Assembly (NCBI GenBank): GCA_002021875.1
Contig: CP018627.1
Span: 5,518,001 to 5,582,000 of the forward strand
Reading direction: 5' to 3'
Length of the DNA stretch: 64,000 nt
From: Streptomyces hygroscopicus
GTDB taxonomy: Bacteria; Actinomycetota; Actinomycetes; Streptomycetales; Streptomycetaceae
Positions 19,007 through 37,435 of this stretch are shown here, in pieces (position 1 is the first letter of the stretch; the number at the start of each line of letters is the position of its first letter). Under the pieces are notes generated by a model. The model searched no databases, had not been told where the DNA came from, and was given only the letters and a program-made list of their open reading frames with translations. Both the position numbers and the translations under genes were made by a program.

Positions 19007-19648
19007 ATGACCAGAACGCCGCAGGACGCACTCCACACCGCCGCCTATGTCACCCCGGCGGGCGCGGACTGGCTCGCCTCGGCCAGCGCCTCGCCGCGCG
19101 GTGTGCAGGCCCTGTGGGCCGGAGCCCCGACCGCGGCGGTGACGCTGCCGTGCGGTACGGCGTTCGACGTCATCAGCATGGACGCGCTCTTCGGCCGCCG
19201 GGTGGTGGGCCGGTTATGGACCGACGGCCCCGGCACCGGGCCGGTCGCGGCCCGGTGCGGCCGCGTCATGCTCTTCGCCACCCCGGGCACCGCCCAGCGG
19301 CTGCCGGCGCTGCTCGGCTGGGAGGAGTGGGGCGCGACCGCTCCCCCACTGCTCTGCTACGGGCGGGGCGACGCGGTGACCGTGCCGCCACTGTTCCCAC
19401 CGGACCCCGATCCGCCGGAGGCGGCGCCCCTGGAGCGCGACGCCCGGGAGACCGGGAACCATGAGCCCGGCGCCCGGGAGTGCGCCCCGGTGCCGTCGCC
19501 GCGCTGGCTGGTCGCGCCCGATGTCCGCAAGCCCTGGCTGCCCGGTCCCGAGGTGCTGCTGTGGGCCTGTGTGAGGGCGGCCCGCGCCGCCGGTTGTGAT
19601 CTTGTCGGCACGGCTGTGACCAGCACACCCGCCGTCTTTCCGGGCTGA
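19007..19648 (+). CDS. Degenerate PrimPol-like protein, hypothetical
   Basis: The 213-residue product starts at ATG 19007 with AAAGGTGG upstream. The order of segments (AAYVTPAGADWLAS, GAPTAAVTLPCGTAFDVISMD, then GPVAARCGRVMLFATPGT, PPLLCYGRGDAVTVPP and a C-terminal PWLPGPEVLLWACVRAA) recalls the bifunctional primase/polymerase fold as found in short actinobacterial homologues. However, the catalytic acidic pair and His of active PrimPols are not evident. It is likely non-enzymatic or has lost activity. It lies just upstream of a tRNA-Lys gene, a common site for mobile elements, although nothing else mobile is visible. Confidence 0.5.
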   Translation: MTRTPQDALHTAAYVTPAGADWLASASASPRGVQALWAGAPTAAVTLPCGTAFDVISMDALFGRRVVGRLWTDGPGTGPVAARCGRVMLFATPGTAQRLPALLGWEEWGATAPPLLCYGRGDAVTVPPLFPPDPDPPEAAPLERDARETGNHEPGARECAPVPSPRWLVAPDVRKPWLPGPEVLLWACVRAARAAGCDLVGTAVTSTPAVFPG

Positions 19649-19832: not shown

Positions 19833-21089
19833 TCACGTCGCCGGGCCCGTGAGCCGGGTGACCGCCAGCACCGCCTTGTCCGGGCCGGGCATCGCCAGCG
19901 CCTCCCGCCGCAGGGCGTGCGCCGCCGCGGCGTACGAGGGCTGTTCCAGCAGTGTGAACAGGTCCAGGGCCAGCCGACCGCCCGCCGCCCGCGCCCCGTG
20001 CCGCGTGCCGTCGAGGGCGTCGGCGGGCAGATACATCCCGGCGCCCGCCCGGGCCAGCCGCGCCCCGTTCAGCTGCTGCTCGAGGCGGGGCGCGACGACC
20101 AGCTGCGGCACCCCGGCCGTGGCGGCGGCCAGCACCGCCGCGCCCCCGCCCTGGTGGAGCAGGGCCCGGCAGCCCGGCAGCACCCGGTGCAGCGGCCCGG
20201 CGGGCGGCCGCCCCTCGGCGGCGCTGCCGACCCGGACGACCTCCACGCCCCGCGCCTCGGCGGCCCACAGTGCGGCCCTTACGGCGTCCGGCGGGCCACT
20301 GGCGTCGTCCCACGCCGCGCACACCCGCACCGGCCCGGAGCGCCTCGGGCCGCCCGGCCCGCGCCGCCCGTTCGACGCGGTGACCTGGCGCGCGGGGTAC
20401 GGCCCGGCGCGGCGGGCCTCGTAAGGCGACGGCGCCTCATGCGGCGACGACCCATCCTGCGGAACGAGGCGCACCGGCATCCGCCGCGCCCGCGAGGGCA
20501 GTGCGAGGCTCGGCGGGCAGGGGTCGAGCCAGAGGTCGGGCTCGCGCGCCGGGTCGGCGCCGTAACGCCGCATCAGCCGGGCGTAGCCGGGCAGCGGCGG
20601 GCCTTCGAGCCGCTGCCGGTCCAGCCGCAGCACGGCCGCGCTCCCCCACAGCTGACCGATCGCGGGCACCCCCAGCGCCCCCGCGGCCACCGTGCCCGCG
20701 TACGCGCTGGCGTCATGCACCACCAGCTCCGGCTGCCAGCAGCGGGCGAAGGCCACCAGACCCTGGGCCATCGCCTCGGCGATCCGCACCTGCCGATCGC
20801 CCAACGCGCGCAGCACGCCGTGCTGCTCCGCGGTGAGCGCGGCGGGCCGCACCGGCCAGTCCGTCGGCCAGACGCCGCGCGGGCGCCGCGTCGCGTCCGG
20901 TGCCCTGACCACCGCCACGGGCAGGGCACCGATCTGCACCGGCACCAGGCCGGTCCGGGCGACGGCCGCCGCGCACTCGGACGGCACCGCGACCCGCACC
21001 TGGTGCCCGGCTCCGAGCAGGGCGCGCGCCAGCGGCACCATGGGAACGAGATGGGCGCCCGAGGCCCAGGTCGTGAAGAGGACGCGCAC
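19833..21089 (-). CDS. GT1-type (MGT-like) glycosyltransferase
   Basis: The 418-residue protein starts at GTG 21089 behind GGGAGGTGAACC. It has the GT-B two-domain layout of antibiotic glycosyltransferases. The N-terminal acceptor domain begins MRVLFTTWASGAHLVPMVPLARAL, and the C-terminal nucleotide-sugar domain carries LLHQGGGAAVLAAATAGVPQLVV with the conserved His and glycine run, followed by EQQLNGARLARAG. Close relatives in natural-product clusters attach deoxysugars to polyketides or peptides from dTDP donors. A variable linker (about residues 205-250) is rich in Pro/Arg. It is the last gene of the leftward set of the RiPP-like locus; acceptor and sugar are unknown, and no deoxysugar genes are in the window. 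Confidence 0.8.
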   Translation of the reverse strand: MRVLFTTWASGAHLVPMVPLARALLGAGHQVRVAVPSECAAAVARTGLVPVQIGALPVAVVRAPDATRRPRGVWPTDWPVRPAALTAEQHGVLRALGDRQVRIAEAMAQGLVAFARCWQPELVVHDASAYAGTVAAGALGVPAIGQLWGSAAVLRLDRQRLEGPPLPGYARLMRRYGADPAREPDLWLDPCPPSLALPSRARRMPVRLVPQDGSSPHEAPSPYEARRAGPYPARQVTASNGRRGPGGPRRSGPVRVCAAWDDASGPPDAVRAALWAAEARGVEVVRVGSAAEGRPPAGPLHRVLPGCRALLHQGGGAAVLAAATAGVPQLVVAPRLEQQLNGARLARAGAGMYLPADALDGTRHGARAAGGRLALDLFTLLEQPSYAAAAHALRREALAMPGPDKAVLAVTRLTGPAT

Positions 21090-21181
21090 GGTTCACCTCC
21101 CGCAGAGGTTGAGCCGGCCGGACCGCCCGGTCCGGCCGATGGACATGACACCGAGCCGACCCATCGCTCCCCTCGCCGGGC

Positions 21182-21910
21182 TCAGCGGCACCCCCCGAGC
21201 GTCAGCGCTTCGCCGGTGACCGTGCCGTTGGCCGCCGAGCACAGGAAGAGGAGGGCGCGGGCGATGTCCTCGGGGGTGGCGGGCGGCCGGTCAGGCGGAG
21301 TCGGCGGCCGGTCGGGCGAGGTCGGCCCGGGGCACACGGCGTTGATCAGCACTCCATCGCCGCCCACTTCGCCCGCCAGTCCGCGGACCAGACCGTGCAG
21401 CCCGGCCCGCGCCACCGCGTGGAACTCCCCGTCGACCGCGCCGTCCGGTGCCTGCGGTGAGGCCACCAGCGCGATCCGGCCCCAGCCGCGCTTGCGCATC
21501 CCGGCGACGGCCCACTGGACGGTGCGCATAGCGGGCACGAAGCCGTCGGCGACGAGGGGCCGCCAGTGCTCCTCCGGTACGTCCTCGAACCGGGTGTGCG
21601 GATCGCGTCGCGCGCCCCGCCGCCGGGCGGCCGCCACCAGCACGTCGAGCCCGCCCCAGTGCTCCTCCACGGCGGCCACGACCCAGCGTGGCGACGCGGC
21701 GTCGTCCAGGGCGTACGGCACGGCGAAGGCCCTGCCACCGTCCGGTCCGGACAGCTCGGCGGCCAGCGCCTCGGCGGCCTCGCGGTGGTGCCGGAAGGCG
21801 AGCGCCACCCGGGCGCCCTGCTCCGCGAAGGCGCGTGCGGCGGCCCGGCCGATGGCCCCGGTGGCCCCGGTGACCAGGACCGTGCGCCCCTCCAGGCCGA
21901 GGTCCAACAT
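21182..21910 (-). CDS. SDR-fold protein lacking the catalytic Tyr and Lys
   Basis: The 242-residue product is a classical short-chain dehydrogenase by length and by the cofactor motif VTGATGAIGRAAARAF. The active-site serine remains in LVASPQAPDG, but the Y-x3-K element is replaced by GEFHAVARAGLHGLV (Phe for Tyr, Arg for Lys), and the N-N-A-G structural motif reads VAAARRRG. Conventional ketoreduction is therefore unlikely. It may bind cofactor or substrate, act as a partner subunit, or catalyse a different step. The start ATG 21910 has GAGGAGCG upstream. It lies between the glycosyltransferase and the GlxA-type regulator in the same direction. Confidence 0.8.
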   Translation of the reverse strand: MLDLGLEGRTVLVTGATGAIGRAAARAFAEQGARVALAFRHHREAAEALAAELSGPDGGRAFAVPYALDDAASPRWVVAAVEEHWGGLDVLVAAARRRGARRDPHTRFEDVPEEHWRPLVADGFVPAMRTVQWAVAGMRKRGWGRIALVASPQAPDGAVDGEFHAVARAGLHGLVRGLAGEVGGDGVLINAVCPGPTSPDRPPTPPDRPPATPEDIARALLFLCSAANGTVTGEALTLGGCR

Positions 21911-22013
21911 GGGCGCTCCTCGCGGTCGTTCCCACTGAGAAGGCCATGGTCGCCGCCGTGACTCGAGTACGCCTCGACCTGTGCCCGAGGCTGCCCAGGG
22001 GACCGCTCGGCGG

Positions 22014-22964
22014 CTATCCGGCGTTTCGCTGGAAGGCGGAGCGGTAGCTGTGCGGGCTGGTGCCGACGACGCGCTTGAAGCGGTCCCGGAAGGAGGTGGG
22101 CGAGCCGAAGCCGACCTGAGTGGCGATGCGCTCGACCGGGTGGGTGGTGGCCTCCAGCAGATACTGCGCCTGCCGGATCCGGGCGCGGTGCAGCCACTGC
22201 AGCGGGGTGGTTCCGGTGTGCTCCCGGAACCGGCGGTTGAGGGTGCGGGTGCTCATGCCGATGTGGGCGGCGATCTCGTTGAGGGTGAGGTCCCGTCCGG
22301 CGTTGTCCTCCATCCACCGCAGCAGCGGTTCGAACAGCGATCCGCGCGGTACGGGCGGCTGGTCGTGAACGATGAACTGGGCCTGCCCGCCCTCCCGTTC
22401 CAGGGGCATCACGGACAGCCGCGCGGCGTCGGCGGCCACGGCGGAGCCATGGTCGCGCCGGATCATGTGCAGACACAGATCGAGCCCGGCCGCGGCGCCC
22501 GCCGAGGTGAGGATCTGGCCGTTGTCCACATAGAGCACATCCGGGTCGACCTGGATCTTCGGATGGAGCTCGGAAAGCAGCGCACCGGCGAGCCAGTGGG
22601 TGGTGGCGCGGTGTCCGTCGAGCAGCCCGGTGGCGGCGAGGACGAAGGCTCCGGAGCAGATCGAGGCGATACGGGTGCCCCGGTCGGCGGCGTCCCGCAA
22701 CGCGTCGATCACCTCGTCGGGGACCGGAAGCAGCGCGTCGCTGCGGCCGGGCACGACGATCGTGTCGGCCTCGGCGAGCGCCTCGAGCCCGTACGGGGCC
22801 TGGAGAGCGAACACCCCGGCGTCGACGCTGGGGGCGGGGCCGCAGACCCGGACCCGGTAGGGCTCCCGGCCGTCGGGCAGCCGGGTGCGGGTGAAGACCT
22901 CGATCGGGGTGGCCAGATCGAAGGGGATGACCTGGTCCAGCGCCAGGATCACGACAGTGTGCAT
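22014..22964 (-). CDS. GlxA/FtrA-type transcriptional regulator (DJ-1/PfpI plus AraC HTH)
   Basis: The 316-residue regulator joins an N-terminal DJ-1/PfpI-like amidotransferase fold (about 1-185, beginning MHTVVILALDQVIPFDLATP, with Cys in SICSGAFVLAATGLL) to a C-terminal AraC/XylS double helix-turn-helix (about 215-316; NEIAAHIGMSTRTLNRRF and RIATQVGFGSPTSFRDRFKR). Proteins of this type regulate catabolic or secondary-metabolite genes in Streptomyces. It is oriented with the FAD monooxygenase upstream (93-bp gap) and the SDR downstream (103-bp gap), so it may be co-transcribed and local in action. Confidence 0.9.
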   Translation of the reverse strand: MHTVVILALDQVIPFDLATPIEVFTRTRLPDGREPYRVRVCGPAPSVDAGVFALQAPYGLEALAEADTIVVPGRSDALLPVPDEVIDALRDAADRGTRIASICSGAFVLAATGLLDGHRATTHWLAGALLSELHPKIQVDPDVLYVDNGQILTSAGAAAGLDLCLHMIRRDHGSAVAADAARLSVMPLEREGGQAQFIVHDQPPVPRGSLFEPLLRWMEDNAGRDLTLNEIAAHIGMSTRTLNRRFREHTGTTPLQWLHRARIRQAQYLLEATTHPVERIATQVGFGSPTSFRDRFKRVVGTSPHSYRSAFQRNAG

Positions 22965-23057
22965 GGCCTCAACTTAGGCGGTGCGGCATATGCACTCGAA
23001 GCCGGGGTGGCGATAAGTCGGCGAACTAGTGCTTTCCAGCCATCGCGCTCCGGGGTG

Positions 23058-24293
23058 TCATATCCGGCCACACACTCCGGCGTCGGCGATGCGGATCGAC
23101 GGGTTGCCGTAGGCCATGCGCTGCAGGATCTTGCGATAGAACGGCGTACGACGCAGCGCCCGCGCGAGACGGGGGCGCACCCGGGTGGTGAACGTGCCCT
23201 GCGAGAGGATCGCCCGGCTCTGCAGGGTCTGCATCCGCATCACCGCCGCGATATCGGGCCCGCGCCGCCGCTCGAACTCCGCCAGCCGCTCGGCGCTGGT
23301 GTCGCCCTCGGCCAGGGCGCGGGCCAACAGGGGGTGCAGCACCACCGCGTCCTGCACCGCGAGGTTGATGCCCTGGGCGCCGATCGGGCTGTGGGTGTGG
23401 GCGGCGTCGCCGATCAGCACCAGCCCATCGGCGACCCAGCGCTCGGCGCGTGCGGAGAAGACCTCGAGCACGCCGAGGTCGGCCGGGGTGCGGATCTGAT
23501 CGCGGATCAGCGTGGCGTACCCCGGCACGGCACGCACCAGCCGCTCCTTGACTTGGTCGAGGCCGAGGGCGGCGATATGGCCGTAGCGCCGGTGCGGCAG
23601 GGTCCAGCCGATCTGGATCCGGTTCGACCAGGAGCCGTAGACCAGCACCGGGCCGCCGCCGGCGCGGAACACCCGCACATCGCGGAGCGGCGGCTCTTCC
23701 CGGGGCGCGATGAGCGTGCACCACAGCACATCCTGGGCGAACGCGTCGGCGCGGCCCGCTCCGATGCCCGCCAGCCGCCGGATCCGCGAGAACCGGCCGT
23801 CCGCGCCGACGACGACCCGGGCTCGCACGGCACAGCGGTCCGGCGGTCCCTCGGCGATGACCCCGGCGATCCGCTCCCCCCGCCACAGCAGGGCCCCGGC
23901 CCGGCGTCCGGGCAGATAGCGGAAGCCTGGCGAGCGGCGGCAGCGGGCGAGGAGCTCATCCAGCAGATGGGGGCGCGGAACGCTCAACAGGTGGTCGTAC
24001 GGGGCCGCAAGCAGCCGGTAGTCGGCCTCCAGCAGCACTCGCTCGCCCTCGATGACCAGGAATCGGTCGTGCTCATGGGCACCGCGGGCGCGGGCGCCGG
24101 CGAGCACACCGAGCGCGTCCAACAGCGCCATCGCGCCGGGTTGGAGGATTTCGCCGCGGAACACGCGCTGATGCGCGCGGGCGCACTCCACCACGGTCAC
24201 CCGGGCCCCCGACCGCAGCATCAGCAGCGCCAGCACCAGACCGGCCGGGCCGCCGCCGACCACGCACACATCGGTGTCGATCTCGCGCGTCAT
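23058..24293 (-). CDS. FAD-dependent monooxygenase (PHBH/UbiH type)
   Basis: From ATG 24293, preceded by an ideal AGGAGGCGCG, the product has 411 residues. The FAD-binding dinucleotide motif is CVVGGGPAGLVLALLML near the N-terminus, the DG motif is RVVVGADGRFSRIRR and the third motif is GDAAHTHSPIGAQGINLAVQDA. This is the single-component aromatic hydroxylase/epoxidase fold that uses NAD(P)H and O2. In the RiPP-like locus it could hydroxylate or oxidise the modified peptide. N-oxygenation is another possibility, as proposed for flavoenzymes of other linear azole peptides, but the substrate is unknown. The start chosen removes 22 non-homologous residues. Confidence 0.85.
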   Translation of the reverse strand: MTREIDTDVCVVGGGPAGLVLALLMLRSGARVTVVECARAHQRVFRGEILQPGAMALLDALGVLAGARARGAHEHDRFLVIEGERVLLEADYRLLAAPYDHLLSVPRPHLLDELLARCRRSPGFRYLPGRRAGALLWRGERIAGVIAEGPPDRCAVRARVVVGADGRFSRIRRLAGIGAGRADAFAQDVLWCTLIAPREEPPLRDVRVFRAGGGPVLVYGSWSNRIQIGWTLPHRRYGHIAALGLDQVKERLVRAVPGYATLIRDQIRTPADLGVLEVFSARAERWVADGLVLIGDAAHTHSPIGAQGINLAVQDAVVLHPLLARALAEGDTSAERLAEFERRRGPDIAAVMRMQTLQSRAILSQGTFTTRVRPRLARALRRTPFYRKILQRMAYGNPSIRIADAGVCGRI

Positions 24294-24524
24294 CGCGCCT
24301 CCTGCTGGTCGAGCTCCAGGACATGGGCATCGGGCGCCTGTGGCATCCCCTGGACGCACTACGGCTCCGCTTGCCCGCGCGGGGGGATCGGGCAGCGGAG
24401 CCGTAGCGAGCCCGGCTGAAGGGCGGCGCCGGGCGTTCTTGGGGGGATGGTTCGCCGGACGGGGACGGCTGGTGGGGGGGCTAACGGGCTCCGGACGAGG
24501 GCGGTGTCGGGGGGCTGTGGGGGC

Positions 24525-24587
24525 TATCGGCTGTGGACTGTTGGCTATTGGCTGTGGACTGTTGGCTATTGGCTGTGGACTGTTGGT
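24525..24587. repeat. Array of nine contiguous heptamers (TRTNGRY-type) next to the SARP gene
   Basis: Three 21-bp direct repeats (24522-24542, 24543-24563, 24564-24584) resolve into consecutive 7-mers: TATCGGC, TGTGGAC, TGTTGGC, TATTGGC, TGTGGAC, TGTTGGC, TATTGGC, TGTGGAC, TGTTGGT. They abut the stop codon of the SARP gene and lie 232-294 bp upstream of the FAD monooxygenase start. SARP regulators bind heptameric direct repeats, so this is a candidate binding array, although its period has no gaps and its distance from the start codon is greater than in known SARP promoters. The rest of the 294-bp gap holds no gene that I can support. Confidence 0.8.
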
Positions 24588-25412
24588 CTATGCGGCGAAC
24601 AGGTCGAGCACCGGGCGGCGCCATTGGCCGTCCAGATCCAGATCGAGCGCCGGGTCGGAGGCGAGCACCGCCTGCTGGAGCTTCTGCAGTCGCGGCGACG
24701 GCTCCAGCCCGAGGTCCTCGACCAGTCTGGCGCGCAGCCCCTGGTAGACCTCCAGCGCTTGCCAGGGGCGGCCCGCGCGATAGAGAGCGGCCATGCACTG
24801 GGCGTGCAGCCCCTCGTGCAGCGGATGACGGGCGGTCAACTCGGTGAGCTCCGTGAGCAGCTCGGCATGGCGACCCAGCCGCAGATCGGCCTCGATACGG
24901 CGCTCCAGGACGCCGAGCCGGCTCTCCTCCAGACGGGCCAGCTCGATCTCCAGGACCGGCCCGACCTTCACATCCACCAGCGCGGGGCCGCGCCAGACGG
25001 CCAGCGCCTCGCGCAGCAGCAGGGACGCCTGGACATCGTCCCCGGCGTCCAGCGCGTCCCGCCCCGCGGCCACCAGCCGGTCGTACTCATGGATGTCCAC
25101 CGCGCCCGGCTGGGCCTCCAGCACATATCCGCCGTAGCGCGTGGCCAGGACGTCCTTGGAAGCCTGCGGGGCCTGCGGCCCGTAGGCCGTGGCCAGCCTG
25201 CGGCGCAGCTGCAGGATGTAGGTCTGCAAAGTGGTGAGCGCGCTGCGCGGCATCTGCGTGCCCCAGATTTCCTCCATAAGAGTGGGCACCGGCAGCATCT
25301 GGTTGGCGTAGACGGAAAGCAGTGCAAGGATCTGGCGCGGCTTGCCCGCGCTGGGCACGATCGACTGACCGCACGCCTCGACGCTCAGCGGCCCCAACAC
25401 CTTGATGTCCAT
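24588..25412 (-). CDS. SARP-family transcriptional activator
   Basis: The 274-residue protein is a small, two-domain SARP. An OmpR-like winged helix occupies residues about 1-95 (MDIKVLGPLSVEACGQSIVP, RQILALLSVYAN and SALTTLQTYILQLRRRL). A bacterial transcriptional activator domain with TPR-like helices fills 100-250 (VDIHEYDRLVAAGRDAL and ending GRPWQALEVYQGLRARLVEDLGLEPSP). GGAGGTACACGACC precedes ATG 25412. SARPs are cluster-situated activators of antibiotic biosynthesis. This one is divergent from the precursor-peptide gene across a 181-bp region, so it is probably the pathway-specific switch. Confidence 0.92.
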   Translation of the reverse strand: MDIKVLGPLSVEACGQSIVPSAGKPRQILALLSVYANQMLPVPTLMEEIWGTQMPRSALTTLQTYILQLRRRLATAYGPQAPQASKDVLATRYGGYVLEAQPGAVDIHEYDRLVAAGRDALDAGDDVQASLLLREALAVWRGPALVDVKVGPVLEIELARLEESRLGVLERRIEADLRLGRHAELLTELTELTARHPLHEGLHAQCMAALYRAGRPWQALEVYQGLRARLVEDLGLEPSPRLQKLQQAVLASDPALDLDLDGQWRRPVLDLFAA

Positions 25413-25593
25413 GGTCGTGTACCTCCGTCAACGGTCCGTCAAGTGCCTCCTGGCCGCGCGGCCTGCCACCGAGGCATTTAAGAGCCTCGCTTGTGGGCGA
25501 CCTGTGCGGCCAGTGCCGGAGTAACGAGCTCGATATGAGTTCCAGAGCGTCGCACCATGACAAATTCACACCCTGGCGATGAGAGAGTCCGCG
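25413..25593. promoter_or_regulatory. Divergent control region of SARP and precursor genes
   Basis: This 181-bp region must hold the promoters of the leftward SARP gene and the rightward precursor/cyclodehydratase genes. It is locally more AT-rich (for example CATTTAAGAG near 25475 and CATGACAAATTC near 25556) than the surrounding coding DNA. No heptamer array like that at 24525 is present here. Confidence 0.5.
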
Positions 25594-25872
25594 ATGACCG
25601 ATACGCCCGTCCCACATGAGTTCACGAGCCCCGCCGTCCTGGCTCGTTCCGCCGAGAACACCGAGGTCACCGGAGTCGTCGAGATCGCCGAGCGCGCCAG
25701 GATCACCCGGCGCGCCGGGGCCATCGGGACCACCGCCGGGTCCATCGGGACCGCCGCCGAGACCCTTCAGCCGCCCGCCGAGGACGACGACCTGGTCATC
25801 GAGGACCTCTCCGACGCCGCCTGGCCCATCGGCGCGCCCGCCATCTGCATCTGCACCGTCGGCGCCGAATAA
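25594..25872 (+). CDS. Putative azol(in)e RiPP precursor peptide
   Basis: The 92-residue product starts at ATG 25594, with GAGAGAG seven bases upstream. The long leader is rich in Ala/Thr/Glu. An acidic stretch, EDDDLVIEDLSDAAW, precedes the C-terminal segment PIGAPAICICTVGAE. The tail holds the only cysteines (CICT) plus a Thr, the residues that YcaO enzymes convert into thiazol(in)e and (methyl)oxazol(in)e. The acidic/hydrophobic LVIEDL stretch resembles the recognition part of such leaders. The gene lies eight bases upstream of a fused cyclodehydratase. No known RiPP core of exactly this sequence comes to mind; the core boundary is a guess between Trp and Pro or after Gly. Confidence 0.8.
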   Translation: MTDTPVPHEFTSPAVLARSAENTEVTGVVEIAERARITRRAGAIGTTAGSIGTAAETLQPPAEDDDLVIEDLSDAAWPIGAPAICICTVGAE

Positions 25873-25879
25873 CCGGCCG

Positions 25880-28255
25880 ATGACCGGCGAACTGGGCTTC
25901 ACACCACATCTGCGGGTCGAGCCGGTGCCGGGCGAGGCCGTGTATCTCGTCTCCGAGCACGGGGTCACGGCGCTGCACGGGCGGGCGATCGCCGCGCTCG
26001 CGCCGCTGCTCGACGGGTCGCGGGACCTCGCCCACATCCTCACCGAGGCCGCCGCGCCCGCCCGCGCCGCGGGTCCGCCCGGGGCGGTCCCGCCCGGCGC
26101 GGTCCCGGCCGGGCAGGCCGAGCGCGTGATCGCCCGCCTCCGCGCGGCCGGGCTGGTCTCCGAGCGCGACCACGCGTGGACCCCCGAGGAGGCGTACTGG
26201 GAGCTGGCCGGGCTGAACACCGCGGGCGGCTCCGCCCCGGCCCCCGCGCCCCAGCCCACCCGCCCCGCCGTGGCCCCGCTGGTCCTCGGCTCGGCCGACC
26301 CGGGCGAGGTGGTCCGGGCGCTGCGCGCCGCGGGGCTGAGGATCGCGGACCTGAGGACCGTGGACGGAAAGGCGGCGGACGGCGATCCGCCGGCTTCCGG
26401 GGCTACTAGCCCTCGGCGCGAGATATGTCAAATCACCCCCCGTCAACATGACGACGCAGAACTCACCCTTGTGGTGTGCGATGACTACCTCGATCCGCGG
26501 CTCGCCGCCGTGGACGCCGCGCACCGCGCCGCCGGCCGGCGCTGGCTGCCCGTCAAACCAGTGGGCACCCAGGCGTGGCTGGGCCCGTTCCTCGGCGCCC
26601 CCGACGACCCGTGCTGGGTCTGTCTGGCCGACCGGCTGTGGCGCGGACGGCAGGCCGAGGCGTATCTCCAGCACCGGCTCGGCCGCCCCGGACCGGTGCC
26701 GCGCCCGCCCGCCTCACTGCCCGCGAGCCGCGCCGCCGCGCTCCAGCTCGCCGCGCTGGAGGCCGCCAAGTGGCTGGCCGGGCACCGGCATCCGGGCCAG
26801 CGGGAGCTGCGCACCCTGGACAGCCTCACCGCCACCGTGGACCGCCATCCGCTCTCCCGCCGCCCGCAGTGCGCCGGCTGCGGCGATCCGGCGCTCGTCG
26901 CGGCCCGGATACGGGCGCCCCTGGCGCTGCCGTCGCCACGGGAGCCGCTGGCCGAAACCGGCACCGGCACCTCCCCGCGCCGGATCATGGAGCGCTACGG
27001 ACATCTGGTGGACCCCGTCACCGGGCTGGTCACCGAGATCCGGCGCGATCCGCGCGGCCCCGCCGTCCTCAACTGCTTCCACGCCCGCCACCCTTCGTAC
27101 GCGGGAGCGGGCCCCCAGAGCGGCCTGGACGCCGTAAGGGCTGGGCTGCGGGCTGCCGCCCACGGTAAGGGCCGCACCGCCGAGCAGGCGCGGGCGAGCG
27201 CGCTGTGCGAGGCCCTGGAGCACTACAGCGGCCATTTCCAGGGGGACGAGCCGCGGCAGCGCGCCCGCTACCGCGATCTGCACCCGGACGAAGTGGTGCA
27301 CCCGGACACCGTCCAGCTCTTCGACCCGCGCCAGTTCCGCGACCCTGCCCTCCCCGCGCGCCACCGGATCCGCGATCCGTTCGACGAGGGCGCGGAGCTG
27401 GACTGGACCCCGGTGTGGTCGCTCACCGCCGAGCGCCACCGGCTGCTGCCCACCGCGCTGCTGTACTACGGCGCCCCGCAGCCCCCGGGCCACCGCTGCT
27501 GCCGGGCGGACTCCAACGGCGCGGCGGCGGGCGGCACACTGGCCGACGCCGTCGTACGGGGCTTCCTGGAGCTGGTGGAGCGGGACGCGGTCGCCCTGTG
27601 GTGGTACAACCGCACCCGGCAGCCCGCCGTGGCCCTCGACGCCTTCGACGACCCGTGGCTGGCCGAAGTGCGCGCCGCCCACCGGGGGTTGCGGCGCGAG
27701 GTGTGGGCCCTGGACCTCACCACGGACTTCGGCATCCCGGTGGTCGCCGCGCTCTCCCGGCGCCTCGACAAGCCCGCGGAGGACATCACCCTCGGCTTCG
27801 GCGCCCACTTCGACCGGCACACCGCGCTGTGCCACGCCTTCGCCGAGCTGAACCAGATGCTCCCGGCGGTGGTCGAGGCCCGCGCCGACGGCGGGGGCTA
27901 CGGCGCCGCCGAGCCCGAGGCGCTGCGCTGGTTCCGCACCGCGACCGTGGCCGACCACCCGTATCTGACGCCCGACCCGGCCGCCGTACCGCCCTCGGGG
28001 ATATCCGGCCCCCCGGAGGGCGGCGCACTCGCCGCCGTAAGGGAGTTGGCGCGGCAACGCGGGATGGAGTTGCTGGTGCTGGACCAGACCCGGCCGGATG
28101 TGGGGCTGCCGGTGGCCAAGGTGCTGGCGCCCGGAATGCGCCCGCACTGGGCCCGGTTCGCGCCCGGCCGGCTCTTCGACGTCCCGGTCGCGCTCGGACG
28201 GCTGCCGGGGCCCACGCTCTACGCGGACCTCAACCCGATTCCGTTTTTCCTGTGA
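25880..28255 (+). CDS. Fused E1-like/YcaO azoline cyclodehydratase
   Basis: The 791-residue enzyme starts at ATG 25880, probably coupled to the precursor gene. The N-terminal 370 residues form the leader-binding wing (FTPHLRVEPVPGEAVYLVSE) and the E1-like part with CWVC and CAGC zinc pairs. From about residue 375 it is a YcaO domain: RIMERYGHLVDPVTGLV, the ATP-binding glutamates in ASALCEALEHYSG and GFLELVERDAVALWWYN, and a C-terminus ending NPIPFFL, like the proline-containing tail that organises the YcaO active site. This is the TruD-like single-chain organisation, which cyclodehydrates Cys/Ser/Thr using ATP. A dehydrogenase partner is not in the window. Confidence 0.88.
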   Translation: MTGELGFTPHLRVEPVPGEAVYLVSEHGVTALHGRAIAALAPLLDGSRDLAHILTEAAAPARAAGPPGAVPPGAVPAGQAERVIARLRAAGLVSERDHAWTPEEAYWELAGLNTAGGSAPAPAPQPTRPAVAPLVLGSADPGEVVRALRAAGLRIADLRTVDGKAADGDPPASGATSPRREICQITPRQHDDAELTLVVCDDYLDPRLAAVDAAHRAAGRRWLPVKPVGTQAWLGPFLGAPDDPCWVCLADRLWRGRQAEAYLQHRLGRPGPVPRPPASLPASRAAALQLAALEAAKWLAGHRHPGQRELRTLDSLTATVDRHPLSRRPQCAGCGDPALVAARIRAPLALPSPREPLAETGTGTSPRRIMERYGHLVDPVTGLVTEIRRDPRGPAVLNCFHARHPSYAGAGPQSGLDAVRAGLRAAAHGKGRTAEQARASALCEALEHYSGHFQGDEPRQRARYRDLHPDEVVHPDTVQLFDPRQFRDPALPARHRIRDPFDEGAELDWTPVWSLTAERHRLLPTALLYYGAPQPPGHRCCRADSNGAAAGGTLADAVVRGFLELVERDAVALWWYNRTRQPAVALDAFDDPWLAEVRAAHRGLRREVWALDLTTDFGIPVVAALSRRLDKPAEDITLGFGAHFDRHTALCHAFAELNQMLPAVVEARADGGGYGAAEPEALRWFRTATVADHPYLTPDPAAVPPSGISGPPEGGALAAVRELARQRGMELLVLDQTRPDVGLPVAKVLAPGMRPHWARFAPGRLFDVPVALGRLPGPTLYADLNPIPFFL

Positions 28256-28378
28256 TCCCCCGTGATAACGAGTAACTCTGCGTACACCATGAGCCTTCCA
28301 CGCGGCCTCTCCACCCCCGGCAAAGATCGGATACTCTCGGGCAAGCCGCCCAATCCGGCCCGACCATCCGGAGGACGA

Positions 28379-29659
28379 GTGCAGGGGAGCCTCTTGCCCG
28401 ACGATGCCGGGAACCACCCACCGCGCCAACACGACAATCTGGCGCCGCGCCTGGCCGTCGTCATCACGGTCCTCGTGCTGGTGGGCTACTTCGCCGTGGC
28501 CGTCACCTATGTGGTCGACGGCAATCGTTCGGGCAGGACGATCGACGCGGCGATGCTCGGGCTGGCCCTGCTGCCGATGACCGTGCTGCTCTGCCTCCAG
28601 ATGCTGCACTCCTTCCCCGGTCTCGCGCCCCAGCTCAGCGGCGCGCGCCGCTGGACGCTGACGCTCCAGGCGGTGCTGACCTTCGCCCCCTTCGCGGTCT
28701 TCAAGCACGCCTGGCTGGGCATGCCGGGCTTTCTGGCCGGTTCCTCGCTGCTGGTGCTGGCACCGGCGCTGGCGTGGCCGGCGTTCGCGGCCATCCTGCT
28801 GTGCACGGATGTGCTGCTCTTCCAGGTCGGCTTCGGCTGGGGCCAGGTCGCGTACACCTCGGTCTCCACCGCGCTGACCGGGCTGGTGGTCTTCGGGCTC
28901 TCACGGCTGTCCGGGCTGGTCTCCGAGGTGTCCCGGTCCCGGGCGGAGCTGGCCCGGCTGGCGGTCGCCCAGGAGCGGCTGCGGTTCTCCCGGGATGTGC
29001 ACGATCTGCTCGGGTACAGCCTGTCCACGATCACCCTCAAATGCGAGCTGGTGCACCGGCTGGTGCCCCGGCAGAACTCCCGTGCCCAGCAGGAGCTTTC
29101 CGAGATCCTGCAGACCTCCCGTCAGGCCCTTGCCGACGTACGGGCCGTGGCCAGCGGCTATCGCAAGATGTCGCTGTCGGCGGAGTCGGCGACGGCCCGC
29201 TCGATGCTGGCCGCGGCGGGTATCAGCGCCACGTCCGTGATCGACTGCGGGCCGCTGCCGGAGCTGGTGGACACGGTGCTGGCGAGCGTGTTGCGCGAGG
29301 GGCTGACCAATGTGCTGCGTCACAGCAAGGCCGACCACTGCGCGATCGAGGCGCGGCGCAGCGGGCACCAGGTGTGGCTGACCCTCGTGAACGACGGGGT
29401 CGGCCGGCCGTCCACGATCCTGCGCACCGACAGCACGGACGGCGGCAGCGGAATCGGCAACCTCCGGGTCCGGGTGGAGAACCTCGGCGGGCGGCTGCGC
29501 GCGGGCGTACGGCCGGACGGCTGCTTCGAGTTACGGGCGGAGCTGGATGTGTCCGTGGACGCGCCGCCGCGGAGCGGCCGGGAGCGCGGTTCGAAGGACT
29601 CGAAGGACTCGAAGGACTCGAGGGAGGAGTACGGCCCGGGGCCGGCCGTGACGGCGTGA
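28379..29659 (+). CDS. DesK-type sensor histidine kinase with a TTA codon
   Basis: GTG 28379 follows GGAGG by four bases, giving 426 residues. Several membrane helices (about residues 20-180) form the sensor, followed by a short coiled coil. The HisKA_3 motif is RFSRDVHDLLGYSLSTITLK, and an HATPase domain has GLTNVLRHS and a GSGIGNLRVRVE box. It resembles DesK/LiaS-type kinases. Leu in FELRAEL is encoded by TTA at 29531-29533, making translation dependent on the bldA tRNA. The C-terminus contains a nine-base triplication giving KDSKDSKDS. The convergent LuxR-type regulator at 29802 is the obvious partner. Confidence 0.88.
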   Translation: MQGSLLPDDAGNHPPRQHDNLAPRLAVVITVLVLVGYFAVAVTYVVDGNRSGRTIDAAMLGLALLPMTVLLCLQMLHSFPGLAPQLSGARRWTLTLQAVLTFAPFAVFKHAWLGMPGFLAGSSLLVLAPALAWPAFAAILLCTDVLLFQVGFGWGQVAYTSVSTALTGLVVFGLSRLSGLVSEVSRSRAELARLAVAQERLRFSRDVHDLLGYSLSTITLKCELVHRLVPRQNSRAQQELSEILQTSRQALADVRAVASGYRKMSLSAESATARSMLAAAGISATSVIDCGPLPELVDTVLASVLREGLTNVLRHSKADHCAIEARRSGHQVWLTLVNDGVGRPSTILRTDSTDGGSGIGNLRVRVENLGGRLRAGVRPDGCFELRAELDVSVDAPPRSGRERGSKDSKDSKDSREEYGPGPAVTA

Positions 29660-29661
29660 CG

Positions 29662-29797
29662 GGCGTGCGGGCCCGACGGGCGTGCGGGCCCGACGGGCGT
29701 GCGGGCCCGACGGGCGTGCGGGCCCGACGGGCGTGACGGGCTGACGGGCGTGACGGGCTGACGGGCGTGACGGGCTGACGGGCGTGACGGGCTGACG
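29662..29797. repeat. Eight tandem 17-bp units between kinase and regulator genes
   Basis: Four exact copies of GGCGTGCGGGCCCGACG (29662-29729) are followed by four exact copies of the related GGCGTGACGGGCTGACG (29730-29797). The block fills nearly the whole gap between two convergent genes. The first type contains the palindrome CGGGCCCG and could form repeated small hairpins; no true terminator is otherwise seen here. Confidence 0.9.
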
Positions 29798-29801
29798 CGG
29801 T

Positions 29802-30407
29802 CTACAGCCAGCCCGCCTCGCGGGCGATCCGGATGGCGTCGACCCGGTTGCGGGCGTCCAGCTTGGTCACGGCGGACGTCAGATAGTTGCGCACCGTGCC
29901 CACCGACAGAAAGAGCTTGACCGCGATCTGCGCGGACTCCTCCCCCTTCGCGGCGAACCGCAGGACCTCCAGCTCACGCGGCGTCAGCGGCTGCGGACCG
30001 TCGTCGAGGGCGGCCAGCGCGAGCTGTGGATCGATCACTCGCTCGCCCTGGGCGACGGCGCGGATGGCGTCGCTCAGCTTCTCGGGGCTGCTGTCCTTCA
30101 GCAGAAAGCCGGAGACATGGGCGGCCAGCGCCCGGCGCAGATTTCCGGGGCGGCCGAGGCTGGTGAGCATCATGGTGCGGCATTCGGGAACGGCGGTGCT
30201 CAACTCGGCCGCGGCGGTGAGCCCGTCCATACCCGGCAGATCGATATCGAGGACCGCGACATCCGGGCGGAGTTCACGGGCGCGCGGCAGGATATCGGCG
30301 CCGTTGGAGAAATCGGCCACCACCTCGATGTCCGGTTCGAACTCCAGCAGGGCGACCAATGCCTTGCGCAACATATGCATGTCTTCCGCGATCAGCACCC
30401 TGACCAT
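29802..30407 (-). CDS. LuxR/NarL-family response regulator
   Basis: The 201-residue protein has a receiver domain (MVRVLIAEDMHMLRKALVAL, acceptor Asp in VAVLDIDLPGMDGLTAA, Lys in FLLKDSSPEKL). A LuxR-type helix-turn-helix follows (LTPRELEVLRFAAKGEESAQIAVKLFLSVGTVRNYLT). The length and the short linker match DesR-type regulators. ATG 30407 has GGGGGCGGA upstream. It converges with the DesK-like kinase across the 17-bp repeat array, an unusual arrangement because such pairs are normally in one operon. Confidence 0.9.
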   Translation of the reverse strand: MVRVLIAEDMHMLRKALVALLEFEPDIEVVADFSNGADILPRARELRPDVAVLDIDLPGMDGLTAAAELSTAVPECRTMMLTSLGRPGNLRRALAAHVSGFLLKDSSPEKLSDAIRAVAQGERVIDPQLALAALDDGPQPLTPRELEVLRFAAKGEESAQIAVKLFLSVGTVRNYLTSAVTKLDARNRVDAIRIAREAGWL

Positions 30408-30546
30408 TCCGCCCCCTGTTTCCCCGCCCCGTCATCACCCGCATGCCGATTATTCCCGCGCTCTCCCAGCCCTTCCATAGATTCGCGGGCAAATACGCCC
30501 GTCGAACGCATATCTCGTTGCGCGAGCGCGACCGCGCGCCCCCGTG

Positions 30547-32190
30547 TCATGCCGCACCACCCCGGCAGGGCTCACCGACCTCCGGACCGAACTCGGCGTG
30601 CAGGGCGCGCACTTCACCTCGTAGATAGCGCTCGCGCAGCAGGGCGCGCCGCACCTTGGCGGTTCCCGCCCCGCGCACGGTGCCGGGGCGCACCAGCAGC
30701 AGCGCGCCGGTCACGACGCCGAACTCCTCCGCGATCAAGGCGCGGATCCGCGCCGCCAGCCGGGGCAGCCCGGTGCGCGCCCCGCCCGCCGTACGGACGA
30801 CCTCCTGGACGACCACCAGCGCCCCCGCGCCGGGCCCCGCGCAGAACACCCGGGCCGACCCCAGCGCCCGTGCGCAGCGCAGCAGTTCGCGCTCCACGTC
30901 CTGTGGATGCAGGGTGTGGCCGTCCACCAGGAGTGCGTCACGGACCCGGCCGGTCATCCGGAGCCGGCCGTTCACCGTAAGGCCGAGGTCACCGGTGCGC
31001 AGAAAGCCGCCCGGGCCCTCGGCGACGCGGGCGGCGAACAGCAGCGCGGTGTCCGGAGGACCGCCCCAGTGGCCGGTGGCGACGGCGGGGCCGCGCACCC
31101 AGATCTCCCCGGGCGCCCCGTCCGGCAGCCGGCGCCCGGTCAGCGGGTCCACGACGGCGAAGTCCGCGCCCGGCACCGGTGCGCGCCCCGTGGCCAGCGC
31201 CACCGGGGATCCCTCGGCCGGGACGTATCCGGCCACCAGGGTGCCCGGGCGCAGCCCCAGCGGCGCGCAGCGGTGGGGGAACGCGGCCATGGTCCCGGCC
31301 GAGACCGGCTCCCCGGCGTTCAGCGCGGTCCGCCAGCGGGAGAGGTCGAGCCCGGCCGGTGGCTCGTCGCCGAGGAGGGCGGCGCAGCGGGCGTGGAGGA
31401 TGTCGGGCGCGACGGTTTCGGTGATGCCGTGGCGGCTGATGGCCCGCAGCCAGCCGAGCGGATCGGTGCGGAACGGCTCCGCCGGAAGTGTCACGGCGGT
31501 GGCGCCCAGCCACAGCGGATGCAGCACCTGCCCGATCAGCCCGGGGGTGTGGCAACGGGGCAGCCAGCCGCCGATCCGGGAGTGGCGGTCGGTGCCGAGC
31601 GTCCGCCGCAGCCCGGCCATGGCCGCCGTAAGGCTGCCATGGGTGAGCAGGGCGCCGCGTGGGGCGGTGGCTGGCCCCGAGTCGTAGGCGAGCAGCGCGA
31701 GGCTGTCGGCGGTGGTGCGGACGGGTTGCCAGGGCGCGTCGGCGTACGCGTCGGGGCGGAGTCCGTCGACGGCGAGGCAGGTCAGACCGGCGCGGCCGAC
31801 CCGGGAGAGCCTGCGGGAGGTCTCGGTGGCGTGGGCGGTCTCGGTGAGGACGAGGTCCACGGCGGCGTCACGGACGATCGAGGCGGTGCGCTCGGTATCG
31901 GTCCGGGAGGCGGACGGCGCGGGGACGGGCACCGCGACGGCGCCCGCGTACAGACAGCCGAGCAGCGCCACCGCGGCGTGCGGACCGGGGTCCATGGCGA
32001 GCAGCACCCGGCGGCCGGCGGCGTCCCGGGCGCGCAGCCAGACGGCCACGGCGTCGGCGCGGGCGTCGAGCGCGGCGTAGGACACGCGGTGTTCGGTGCC
32101 GTCGTCGGCGGGGTGGGCGAGCGCCGTACCGTCGGCGTGCCGGAGGGCCCGTTCCTTCAGGGCCTCGGCCAGATTCGCGTGTCGCGGCAT
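30547..32190 (-). CDS. Fatty-acyl-AMP-ligase-like adenylating enzyme
   Basis: From ATG 32190 (GGGAG upstream) the product has 547 residues, the size of FAAL enzymes. These activate a carboxylic acid as acyl-AMP for transfer to an acyl carrier protein. The N-terminal domain has RVSYAALDARADAVAVWLRA. The P-loop-like A3 motif is altered to AYDSGPATAPRGALLTHG (Arg where most ligases have Lys). FLRTGDLG is the A7-type motif, and a C-terminal Lys is retained in GAGTAKVRRALLRERYL. No carrier protein or NRPS adjoins it. In the RiPP-like locus it could supply an acyl group to the peptide; it could also belong to unrelated lipid metabolism. Confidence 0.75.
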   Translation of the reverse strand: MPRHANLAEALKERALRHADGTALAHPADDGTEHRVSYAALDARADAVAVWLRARDAAGRRVLLAMDPGPHAAVALLGCLYAGAVAVPVPAPSASRTDTERTASIVRDAAVDLVLTETAHATETSRRLSRVGRAGLTCLAVDGLRPDAYADAPWQPVRTTADSLALLAYDSGPATAPRGALLTHGSLTAAMAGLRRTLGTDRHSRIGGWLPRCHTPGLIGQVLHPLWLGATAVTLPAEPFRTDPLGWLRAISRHGITETVAPDILHARCAALLGDEPPAGLDLSRWRTALNAGEPVSAGTMAAFPHRCAPLGLRPGTLVAGYVPAEGSPVALATGRAPVPGADFAVVDPLTGRRLPDGAPGEIWVRGPAVATGHWGGPPDTALLFAARVAEGPGGFLRTGDLGLTVNGRLRMTGRVRDALLVDGHTLHPQDVERELLRCARALGSARVFCAGPGAGALVVVQEVVRTAGGARTGLPRLAARIRALIAEEFGVVTGALLLVRPGTVRGAGTAKVRRALLRERYLRGEVRALHAEFGPEVGEPCRGGAA

Positions 32191-32404
32191 TCTCAACTCC
32201 CGGGCGCCCGACGTCGGAAAGGGGCCCACAGTCTCGAAGCGGCACCTCGAAGCCGACTTGATCACCGGTTATGAGCGCGCCCCGGCGATCGGCGCGGCTC
32301 CGTCAGCGGCCCGACCTGGTCATCTTCGGGGCGTCGTCAGCGGCTCGACCGGACACCGGCTCGACCGGACATCGGCGCGGCTGGACATCGGCGCGGCACC
32401 GTCA

Positions 32405-33670: not shown

Positions 33671-34036
33671 GTCGACCTCCCGGGCGTAGTCCGAACACCC
33701 ACTCCACCCTGAGGTGAATTGGCGGGGTACGCCCTGTTGGGATGGGCTGGTCGAGTGAAGAGGCCGCGATCCGGGTACGTAACAGACGGTCACAATCGGT
33801 CAGAGCGGCAGTTGGCCCGCGCAGAGTCGAACAGATACGACCAAACACATTGTCAAGACGGCGGTGAGCGCGATGACGTCGATGGAACGCCCGGAGTACG
33901 AGCCCCTATGATCGGCACATGTCCAGCGGGGAATCCCCCTTCAGGCAGGAAATTACGGTCTGCCCGGCACCCGGTGTGAGACAACAAGATGCGTACGAAC
34001 AACCTGGACACAACGAACGCCACGCGGGAGCGAGCG
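33671..34036. other. Divergent intergenic region, no gene seen
   Basis: The 366-bp gap lies between the leftward protease gene and the rightward GGDEF-EAL gene. It is less GC-rich than its surroundings around 33780-33870. A TATGAT hexamer at about 33907 resembles a -10 element for the rightward gene, but no matching -35 is visible. If the GGDEF-EAL gene starts at ATG 33989, the gap is 318 bp. Confidence 0.45.
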
Positions 34037-36145: not shown

Positions 36146-37273
36146 CTACGCCTCCGTCTGCGCCGTCGGGAGATCGTAGGCATCCGCGATCAGCTCGTAC
36201 GAGCGCAGACGGGCGTCACGGCCGTGCGCATTGGCCGTGATCTTGATTTCGTCCACTCCGGTGCGCTTGATCAGCCCGTCGAGCCCCTCGCGGACCTGGT
36301 CCGGGGTGCCGTATTCGACGTTGGCGAGCCAGCTGTTGATGAAGTCGCGCTCGATCTCGTTGAACTCGTACGCCTCGGCCTCCTCGGGCGTCGGCACCAG
36401 GCCGGGGCGGCCGGTGCGCAGCCGGACCATGGCCAGGGCGCCGGTGAGCACCTGCCGGTGGGCCTCCTTCTCGTCCTCGGCGGCGAAGGCCGAGACGCCG
36501 ATCGAGGCGTACGGCCGGTCCAGCGCGGCGGACGGCCGGAAGGTCTCGCGGTAGAGGTCGAGCGCGGGGACGGTGTTGGCCGCGGAGAAGTGGTGGGCGA
36601 AGGAGAACGGCAGACCGAGCATCCCGGCGAGCCGGGCGCTGAATCCACTGGAGCCCAGCAGCCAGATCGAGGGCCGGTCGGCGGACTGGACCCCGCCGGG
36701 CACGGTGCCCTGCACCGGCCCCGGCACCGCGTGGATACGGGCGTAGCGGTGGCCGTCGGGGAAGTCGTCGTCGAGGAATCGGGTCAGCTCGGCGAGCTGC
36801 TGGGGGAAGTCGTCGGCGCCCTCGCGCAGCCGGTCGGTGCGGCGCAGGGCGGCGGCCGTGGCCCCGTCGGTGCCGGGCGCGCGGCCGAGGCCGAGGTCCA
36901 CCCGGCCGGGGGCGAGCGCCTCCAGGGTGCCGAACTGCTCGGCGATGACCAGCGGGGCGTGGTTGGGGAGCATCACCCCGCCGGAGCCCAGCCGGATCCG
37001 CTCGGTGTACGCGGCGAGATGGGCGAGGATCACCGCCGGGGAGGTGCTGGCGACCCCGGGCATGGAGTGGTGCTCGGCGACCCAGAAGCGGTGGAAGCCC
37101 CGGCGCTCGGTGAGCCGGGCGAGCTCGGTGGTGGTCCGCAGCGCCTCGGCGGCCGTCACCCCGCTGCCGACGGTCGCGAGGTCCAGCACCGACAGGGGCA
37201 CCGGTGCGCTGCCGAGGGGCCGGGCCCGGATGGTGTCGTGCTGGTCGTCTCGCCGGTCCTGCTCATCGGCCAC
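36146..37273 (-). CDS. LLM-class flavin-dependent oxidoreductase
   Basis: GTG 37273 lies nine bases after GGAGG and gives 375 residues. The protein is a luciferase-like TIM barrel. It carries [19 protein letters not shown] near the start, the strongly conserved [21 protein letters not shown] segment, [17 protein letters not shown], and [20 protein letters not shown]. It belongs to the group often annotated as an MsnO8-type or alkanal-monooxygenase-like oxidoreductase. It uses reduced FMN or F420; the substrate is unknown. It converges with the GGDEF-EAL gene across the inverted-repeat element. Confidence 0.88.
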
Positions 37274-37435
37274 GGTGGCCCGCCTCCCTGGTCGCACTGC
37301 GGTGCGCGTACGTCTGTCCGGGTACGCCTCTACGTCTACCGCCTGCATTCAACCGGAGAAAGGCTCCGCTTTATTCCCAGCCGCTGCTTCCCCGCCGCTG
37401 CACCCCGCCGCTGTCTCCCCGCCCCCGCATATGGC

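What the first reader, a model, noticed from the sequence alone, without database searches (positions are those of the whole stretch)
25413..28255. Cryptic azol(in)e RiPP locus with an unfamiliar CICT core
A 92-residue peptide with an acidic leader end and a C-terminal PAICICTVGAE lies eight bases before a fused E1-like/YcaO cyclodehydratase. A SARP, FAD monooxygenase, glycosyltransferase, degenerate SDR and FAAL-like enzyme are close by. No SagB-type dehydrogenase, leader protease or transporter is present, so the product may stay at the azoline stage or be oxidised by the flavoenzyme. The combination of a SARP with FAAL and YcaO enzymes is not one I recognise from described RiPP classes.
Basis: partly seen in the sequence, partly recalled or inferred. 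Interest (0 to 1): 0.82.

Follow-up and report, generated by a model that had tools for sequence, protein, structure and literature searches.

The report
Azoline peptide locus from shrunken cluster
A soil Streptomyces carries a tiny peptide gene next to an enzyme that should fold its cysteines into sulfur rings; relatives suggest that the pair belongs to a larger, apparently undescribed family that travels with the same regulators and sometimes sits inside aromatic-antibiotic gene clusters.

Summary
A 92-aa peptide (25594-25872) ending PAICICTVGAE lies 7 bases before a 791-aa TruD-like fused cyclodehydratase, the only YcaO found in the 12-Mb genome. Forty homologues share a length-variable leader middle and an invariant DDLVIE..LS/ICICT end. 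The odd mix of neighbours is best read as a shrunken cluster: S. sparsogenes and strain NBS 14/10, sharing the right-flank gene and ICICT core, have KSalpha/KSbeta, cyclase, PPTase-like and FAAL genes; intermediates keep fragments. FAAL is broken or absent in 8 of 13 clade loci, YcaO whole in 12 of 13; but intact FAAL copies look constrained. No SagB was found in the genome, so the product should stay at the azoline stage. Most likely a regulated linear azoline peptide, a new variant of the TOMM class. Signal or polyketide-hybrid roles stay open.

The parts
25594..25872 (+). Precursor peptide, 92 aa (97 aa if ATG 25579 is used)
25792..25809 (+). Leader motif LVIEDL (inside EDDDLVIEDLSD), shared across the wider precursor family
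   Evidence: role inferred
25843..25869 (+). Predicted core ICICTVGAE: Cys codons 25846-25848 and 25852-25854, Thr 25855-25857
   Evidence: cleavage site not known
25880..28255 (+). Fused TruD/LynD-type cyclodehydratase: N-terminal part with a sub-threshold winged-helix match (aa 8-55), E1-like part aa 220-384, YcaO part aa 429-754
24588..25412 (-). Small SARP regulator, 274 aa, divergent from the precursor; dN/dS 0.03-0.08 against 15 of 16 clade or sister loci (0.16 for L065)
25413..25593 (.). Shared SARP/precursor upstream region with conserved blocks; direct repeat CCGTCAA-4-CCGTCAA (25425-25442), candidate SARP site
   Evidence: one clade only, weak
28379..29659 (+). Membrane histidine kinase (HisKA_3), co-inherited with the YcaO
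29802..30407 (-). LuxR/NarL-type response regulator, presumed partner of the kinase
30547..32265 (-). FAAL-like AMP-binding enzyme, likely left over from the ancestral PKS cluster; open here, broken or absent in 8 of 13 clade loci
23058..24290 (-). PF01494 FAD-dependent monooxygenase (start corrected), clade-specific accessory
22014..22964 (-). DJ-1/PfpI-AraC regulator, clade-specific accessory
21182..21910 (-). Short-chain dehydrogenase, clade-specific accessory
19833..21089 (-). EryCIII-like glycosyltransferase, clade-specific accessory and probable left edge of the locus

Best explanation
The locus encodes a linear azoline RiPP. Inferred steps: the SARP and the adjacent HK/RR pair switch on the operon; the N-terminal leader-binding part of the fused enzyme holds the DDLVIEDL motif of the precursor; the YcaO part then uses ATP to cyclise Cys85 and Cys87 (perhaps Thr88) of ICICT, which lie at a near-constant distance beyond the motif. 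With no SagB found in the genome the rings stay azolines. Leader removal and export must use enzymes coded elsewhere. Evolutionarily, the unit is what remains of a larger SARP-controlled cluster that also held a type II polyketide synthase, cyclase, phosphopantetheinyl transferase and FAAL; the FAAL beside it is dispensable to the peptide unit. Shown by sequence: enzyme family, precursor family, constant partners, the graded gene content. Inferred: the chemistry, docking, direction of change (loss), and that the peptide is a product in its own right.
For: Enzyme: (TruD/LynD alignment including GKG..QARASALCEALEHYSG, SNGxAAGxTL..ELVERD, DQTRPDxGLPVAKV and the C-terminal NPIP). Precursor: 40 homologues with indels in the leader middle and an invariant end; core variants ICICTVGAE, ICICTFSGE, ICICTISVG, ICICTADD; motif followed by Cys in 21 of 26 precursors against a mean of 0.05 in shuffles; a profile built on window-clade precursors finds G067, G082 and G093 precursors next to their YcaO. 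Partners: HK within 2 kb in 32 of 33 YcaO genomes; HK-YcaO distance correlation r=0.89 over 31 loci, 0 of 999 permutations as high. Loss series; the YcaO tree places L013/L014 (with PKS) as sister to the window clade. YcaO dN/dS 0.27-0.36, SARP 0.03-0.08 in 15 of 16 comparisons. No SagB.
Against: No chemistry is shown and no product is known. Selection does not single the peptide unit out: YcaO dN/dS (0.27-0.36) is like that of GT (0.29-0.51 within the clade) and monooxygenase (0.25-0.43, computed on 8 loci only), and the FAAL, where intact, is at 0.21-0.26 among close relatives, so it may still work in the window strain. GT, SDR and monooxygenase may tailor the peptide or something else. In the PKS-bearing relatives the PKS genes flank the peptide unit, which fits a joint product. 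No protease or transporter is linked. Loss of the PKS is inferred by parsimony; separate gain in L013/L014 is not excluded, and only their right flank was matched to the window.
Confidence: 0.64

Rival explanations
1. The modified peptide is a signal: it is released, sensed by the membrane kinase, and works through the response regulator and SARP to turn on whatever cluster lies nearby (type II PKS in some strains, other genes elsewhere).
For: HK and RR are the most constant partners while the biosynthetic genes vary. HK, RR and YcaO distances agree and the HK and YcaO trees hold the same main groups. The kinase has at least three hydrophobic stretches in its N-terminal half and no recognised sensor domain. 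Goadsporin, an azole RiPP, promotes secondary metabolism at low dose (PMC4603692 section 11).
Against: 8 of 88 YcaO-negative genomes keep a kinase of >=195 bits, with no YcaO found beside it (two of the nine loci, L090 and L098, lie on contigs under 4 kb, so a neighbour could be missed). Several of these kinases group inside YcaO-linked ones (L095, L097 and L098 are long branches of unsure place), so the kinase does not seem to depend on the peptide. No exporter or protease is linked. Regulators linked to a cluster are ordinary.
Confidence: 0.17
2. The azoline peptide is joined to an aromatic polyketide or acyl chain made by the type II PKS/FAAL genes (a RiPP-polyketide hybrid), and the window clade makes a reduced form or none.
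For: KSalpha at >=70% identity lies in 9 of the 32 other loci and in L013/L014; in L060, for example, KS genes and carboxyltransferase lie beyond the SARP, and PPTase, ACP-AT, acyl-CoA dehydrogenase and FAAL beyond the HK/RR. KS-bearing loci are in both large YcaO clades.
Against: 23 of 32 loci have no KSalpha at that level in the stretch read (10.6-19.9 kb); the window clade lacks it and keeps the peptide; no enzyme that would join the two parts was recognised among the families scanned, though I made no systematic search. I ran no chance control for the KS linkage.
Confidence: 0.14
3. A non-functional relic: the peptide unit is decaying along with the PKS.
For: FAAL, cyclase and KS genes are broken or gone in much of the clade.
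Against: ICICT invariant in 41 aligned precursors; YcaO open in 12 of 13 clade loci with dN/dS about 0.3; SARP 0.03-0.08 in 15 of 16 comparisons.
Confidence: 0.05

Closest known systems
Cyanobactin cyclodehydratases TruD and LynD
   Same: Same fused leader-binding/E1-like/YcaO architecture (TruD over residues 6-789, LynD mainly 191-789), same C-terminal NPxP ending; LynD/TruD are separate from any dehydrogenase (recalled).
   Different: No PatA/PatG-like protease among the scanned genes, no cyanobactin leader, different organism, regulators and cluster.
Goadsporin (Streptomyces)
   Same: Streptomyces linear azole RiPP with a fused cyclodehydratase and N-terminal leader (PMC5303826 passages; PMC4603692 section 11).
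   Different: Goadsporin cluster has an FMN dehydrogenase, LanB-like dehydratase parts, N-acetyltransferase and a peptidase-transporter; none found here. Core has 19 residues there, about 9 here.
NHLP/Nif11-type TOMMs
   Same: D proteins that group with those of cyanobactins, no PatA/G protease (PMC4603692 section 10); 7 of 26 precursors of the wider family match a loose nitrile-hydratase-like pattern.
   Different: The window precursor does not match that pattern; a short LVIEDL motif is the shared element instead.
SARP-controlled type II PKS clusters (actinorhodin type)
   Same: L013/L014 carry KSalpha/KSbeta, cyclase, PPTase-like gene; the KSalpha of the related locus L060, 73% identical to that of L013, is closest in the PDB to the actinorhodin KS (1tqy, 2.4e-177).
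   Different: A precursor/YcaO pair sits between the SARP and the two-component system; the window itself has no KS.

Membership tests
TOMM (azole-forming RiPP) | Cyclodehydratase: E1-like plus YcaO protein of the azoline-forming type (definition: PMC4603692 passages) | tested here: met
   TIGR03604 and TIGR03882 over cut-off, TruD/LynD alignment
TOMM (azol(in)e-forming RiPP) | Adjacent precursor with leader and Cys/Ser/Thr core | tested here: met
TOMM (azol(in)e-forming RiPP) | Azoline or azole rings on the peptide | not testable with these tools
   needs mass spectrometry
Azole-stage linear peptide (not claimed) | SagB-type dehydrogenase | tested here: not met
   no TIGR03605 match in the genome at E<=0.001; SagB matches in 10 of 32 relatives' loci, two covering only about a third of the query
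Cyanobactin | PatA/PatG-like protease and cyanobactin leader | tested here: not met
   no protease among the ten genes scanned at 19833-32265; no leader family hit
Goadsporin | LanB-like dehydratase parts, dehydrogenase and N-acetyltransferase in the cluster (PMC5303826 passages) | tested here: not met
   none among the scanned genes of the locus; no SagB in the genome
Thiopeptide | [4+2] cyclase and LanB-like dehydratases | tested here: not met
   no such gene among the scanned genes; core has one Thr and no Ser
YcaO-TfuA thioamidating system | TfuA partner (recalled) | tested here: not met
   no TfuA among the scanned genes
Type II PKS cluster | KSalpha/KSbeta pair | tested here: not met
   no match in the window locus, present in L013/L014

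The most novel reading that the evidence does not exclude
An unrecognised Streptomyces family of azoline peptides forms a portable cassette (SARP, precursor, TruD-type enzyme, membrane kinase, response regulator) in which the ring-bearing peptide is a ribosomal pheromone that the kinase senses to switch on adjacent aromatic-polyketide or other clusters; in the window lineage the cassette outlived its polyketide cluster.
Probability: 0.15. Interest if true: 0.88.

Novelty: new variant of a known kind. Interest (0 to 1): 0.6.

Why it matters
About a quarter of the sampled Streptomyces genomes (33 of 121) carry a relative of this YcaO, nearly always near the same kinase, with short Cys-bearing cores (often Cys-x-Cys) and a compact leader motif. 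I found no description of the family in the searches named. It offers small, easily made substrates for azoline enzymes, a possible marker for hybrid or co-regulated aromatic polyketide clusters, and a direct test of whether a ring-modified ribosomal peptide can act as a Streptomyces autoregulator.

Tried and rejected
1) SARP box: the 11-bp repeat CCGTCAA is perfect in the window clade, but of 23 SARP loci scanned (30 qualified, 7 near-copies dropped) the 5 with a perfect 11-bp repeat are all of that clade, and 35 of 100 shuffles of the window hold at least one site with up to 2 mismatches. Kept as a weak lead only.

2) Monooxygenase as pseudogene: in-frame stops in L004, L005, L007, L008, L009 and L066 lie before the true start; rejected. 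These six rows had dropped out of the monooxygenase dN/dS for the same reason. The same check supports the kinase start at 28379; the kinase dN/dS used the longer frame from 28262.

3) FAAL as a needed part of the pathway: rejected for the clade because of repeated loss; against this, intact copies are at dN/dS 0.21-0.26.

4) Kinase strictly dependent on the peptide: judged unlikely, since 8 YcaO-negative genomes keep a close kinase.

5) Precursor search in plasmids found nothing. NCBIfam and Pfam gave no family for the precursor.

6) The leader motif pattern was written after seeing the sequences; the profile search is the less biased check and reaches only part of the family (6 of 121 genomes). 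Not among the 26 precursors: near-copies L065, L066, L072, L073, L075, L077, L086 and the rest of the window clade; L085 and L087 gave no convincing candidate. Not matching the pattern: L062, L074, L081, L084, L089. Left out of the 13-locus clade count: L002 and L006, whose contigs end inside the YcaO. L005 has a split YcaO as well as a split FAAL, perhaps assembly errors. Four close relatives (L004, L007, L008, L010) were left out of the trees, and two short YcaO (L064, L089) out.

7) Literature: ten searches, (open-licence papers only). SARP+YcaO listed 3 papers, on ribosome structure, bottromycin regulation and producer footprinting; YcaO with type II polyketide, chain length factor or aromatic polyketide listed reviews, surveys, a database paper and genome papers, none read; two searches gave none. 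Papers seen: PMC4603692 abstract, outline, sections 10, 11, 19, 26, 27 and passages; PMC5303826 passages; PMC10676384 passages; for the rest only the listing.
Full report
OBSERVATION. The ORF ending at 25872 reads ...PPAEDDDLVIEDLSDAAWPIGAPAICICTVGAE (there PPAEDDDL is preceded by ETLQ), 92 residues from ATG 25594. Seven bases later starts a 791-residue protein that matches the SagD-type cyclodehydratase model TIGR03604 and the leader-binding model TIGR03882, both above their cut-offs, and aligns with TruD over residues 6-789 and, mainly in the E1-like and YcaO parts, with LynD and MusD. It is the only YcaO found in the 12.01-Mb single-contig genome.

THE PEPTIDE IS REAL. A protein search found 40 homologues; those that carry an organism name are Streptomyces, many of the S. 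violaceusniger group. In the alignment of 41 the leader middle varies in length and sequence, while D70-D71-L72-V73-I74-E75, L77-S78, W82 and I-C-I-C-T are invariant (numbers of the 97-aa form). In more distant relatives the core reads ICICTFSGE, ICICTFGGE, ICICTISVG, ICICTISAG, ICICTADD and ICICTFSTT. A free leader middle and a fixed end are what a RiPP precursor under selection shows.

THE WIDER FAMILY. Relatives of the YcaO at E<=1e-60 occur in 33 of 121 Streptomyces genomes drawn evenly, own genome included. I read the 32 other loci, 10.6-19.9 kb each. In one search the response regulator is found in 30 of 32 (not L069, L087), a SARP at >=58% identity in 20 of 32, a SagB match in 10 of 32 (two of them, L069 and L071, covering only about a third of the query). 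Seen from the kinase, 32 of 33 YcaO genomes have it within 2 kb of the YcaO at >=195 bits (not G062), against 8 of 88 YcaO-negative genomes, with a score gap from 195 to 164 bits. For those 8 no YcaO was found beside the kinase (two loci are on contigs under 4 kb), and several of their kinases group inside YcaO-linked ones (three of unsure place), so the YcaO has probably been lost there. Distances of YcaO, HK and RR correlate at r 0.86-0.89 over 31 loci (0 of 999 permutations), so they have largely descended together.

Upstream of these YcaO genes lie short ORFs with different cores: TCICW (L059), LCICW (L070), ICICW (L074), VCFCE (L069), LCFCL (L076), SICVV (L082). Many share a motif like LVIEDL; in 21 of 26 precursors examined it is followed by a Cys, the first lying 16-20 residues from the motif start, against a mean of 0.05 (largest 1) such precursors in shuffles (pattern written after viewing). 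A profile built from window-clade precursors alone finds precursors next to the YcaO in G067, G082 and G093, besides G000, G079 and G120, and in none of the other 115 genomes. I infer that the motif is held by the leader-binding part of the enzyme, as in other RiPP enzymes (recalled), and that the spacing places the first Cys in the YcaO active site.

A SHRUNKEN CLUSTER. L013 (Streptomyces sp. NBS 14/10) and L014 (S. sparsogenes) share with the window the right-flank gene X32405, the ICICT core, the SARP (94-95% identical) and HK/RR, and in addition have KSalpha and KSbeta, a PF04199 cyclase, a PPTase-like gene and a FAAL. Their left flank was not matched to the window. KSalpha of the related locus L060, 73% identical to that of L013, is closest in the PDB to the actinorhodin ketosynthase. 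L068, which has both window flanks, keeps a KSbeta and a FAAL; L011, L012 and L067 keep a truncated cyclase and FAAL pieces; in the window and the other clade loci searched (L003, L065, L066) neither KS nor cyclase was found. FAAL is a single open frame in the window, L004, L007, L008 and L066 but broken or absent in 8 of 13 clade loci, whereas YcaO is whole in 12 of 13. In the YcaO tree L013/L014 are sister to the window clade, and KS-bearing loci occur in both large clades. Thus the window locus most simply has lost its polyketide synthase and kept the peptide unit and its regulators. Independent gain in L013/L014 is not excluded.

Close homologues of GT, SDR, AraC and the FAD monooxygenase are confined to the window clade at this place; the monooxygenase start is corrected to 24290. 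They may tailor the peptide, or a product made elsewhere; nothing here decides.

SELECTION. Against window sequences, dN/dS is 0.03-0.08 for the SARP in 15 of 16 comparisons (0.16 for L065), 0.04-0.15 for RR, 0.27-0.36 for YcaO, 0.20-0.46 for HK, 0.29-0.51 for GT (0.81 for the L013 GT, probably no orthologue), 0.25-0.43 for the monooxygenase (8 loci) and, against my reading of it as a remnant, 0.21-0.26 for FAAL among the close relatives that keep it (0.46-0.49 against L012-L014). The SARP's constraint is striking and suggests targets beyond this locus (inference). A perfect 11-bp-spaced repeat, CCGTCAA, lies between SARP and precursor (25425-25442), but only in the window clade.

HOW IT LIKELY WORKS. 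The enzyme binds the leader motif and cyclises Cys85 and Cys87, perhaps Thr88. No SagB-type gene was found in the genome, so I expect thiazolines unless another flavoenzyme oxidises them. Leader removal and export are unassigned. Whether the peptide is the final product, a signal for the linked kinase, or in PKS-bearing relatives part of a hybrid, cannot be settled from sequence; I rank them in that order.

NOVELTY. It belongs by enzyme and precursor to the TOMM class and works like TruD/LynD, but lacks the defining features of cyanobactins, goadsporin and thiopeptides tested here. The outline, sections and passages that I read of the 2015 TOMM census (PMC4603692) describe no SARP/kinase-linked Streptomyces family, and ten literature searches listed none that I recognised; subscription papers were not searchable.

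Noticed in passing
L094, L095, L096, L097: SARP with a related HK and RR but no YcaO found nearby; L094 also has a carboxyltransferase of the PKS set.
   Followed up: partly
L081 (G101), upstream of YcaO: Precursor with three FTFCA-type repeats, suggesting several cores from one peptide.
   Followed up: no
L060, L062, L076, L083, L084, L088, L089: Precursors matching a loose nitrile-hydratase-like leader pattern before the short motif.
   Followed up: no
L069, L071, L093: Two kinase copies in tandem.
   Followed up: no
L059:10759-12330: Elongation-factor-type GTPase upstream of the precursor in L059, with relatives in L072 and L075; a CysN-like enzyme or a self-resistance gene are possible.
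   Followed up: no
window 24588-25412: SARP 97-99% identical across the window clade while the YcaO is 78-96%.
   Followed up: partly
window 33989-35977: PAS-GGDEF-EAL cyclic-di-GMP protein to the right of the locus.
   Followed up: no
window 36146-37348: Luciferase-like monooxygenase.
   Followed up: no
window 19007-19648: Small primase/polymerase-like ORF at the left flank, kept in position in most clade loci.
   Followed up: no
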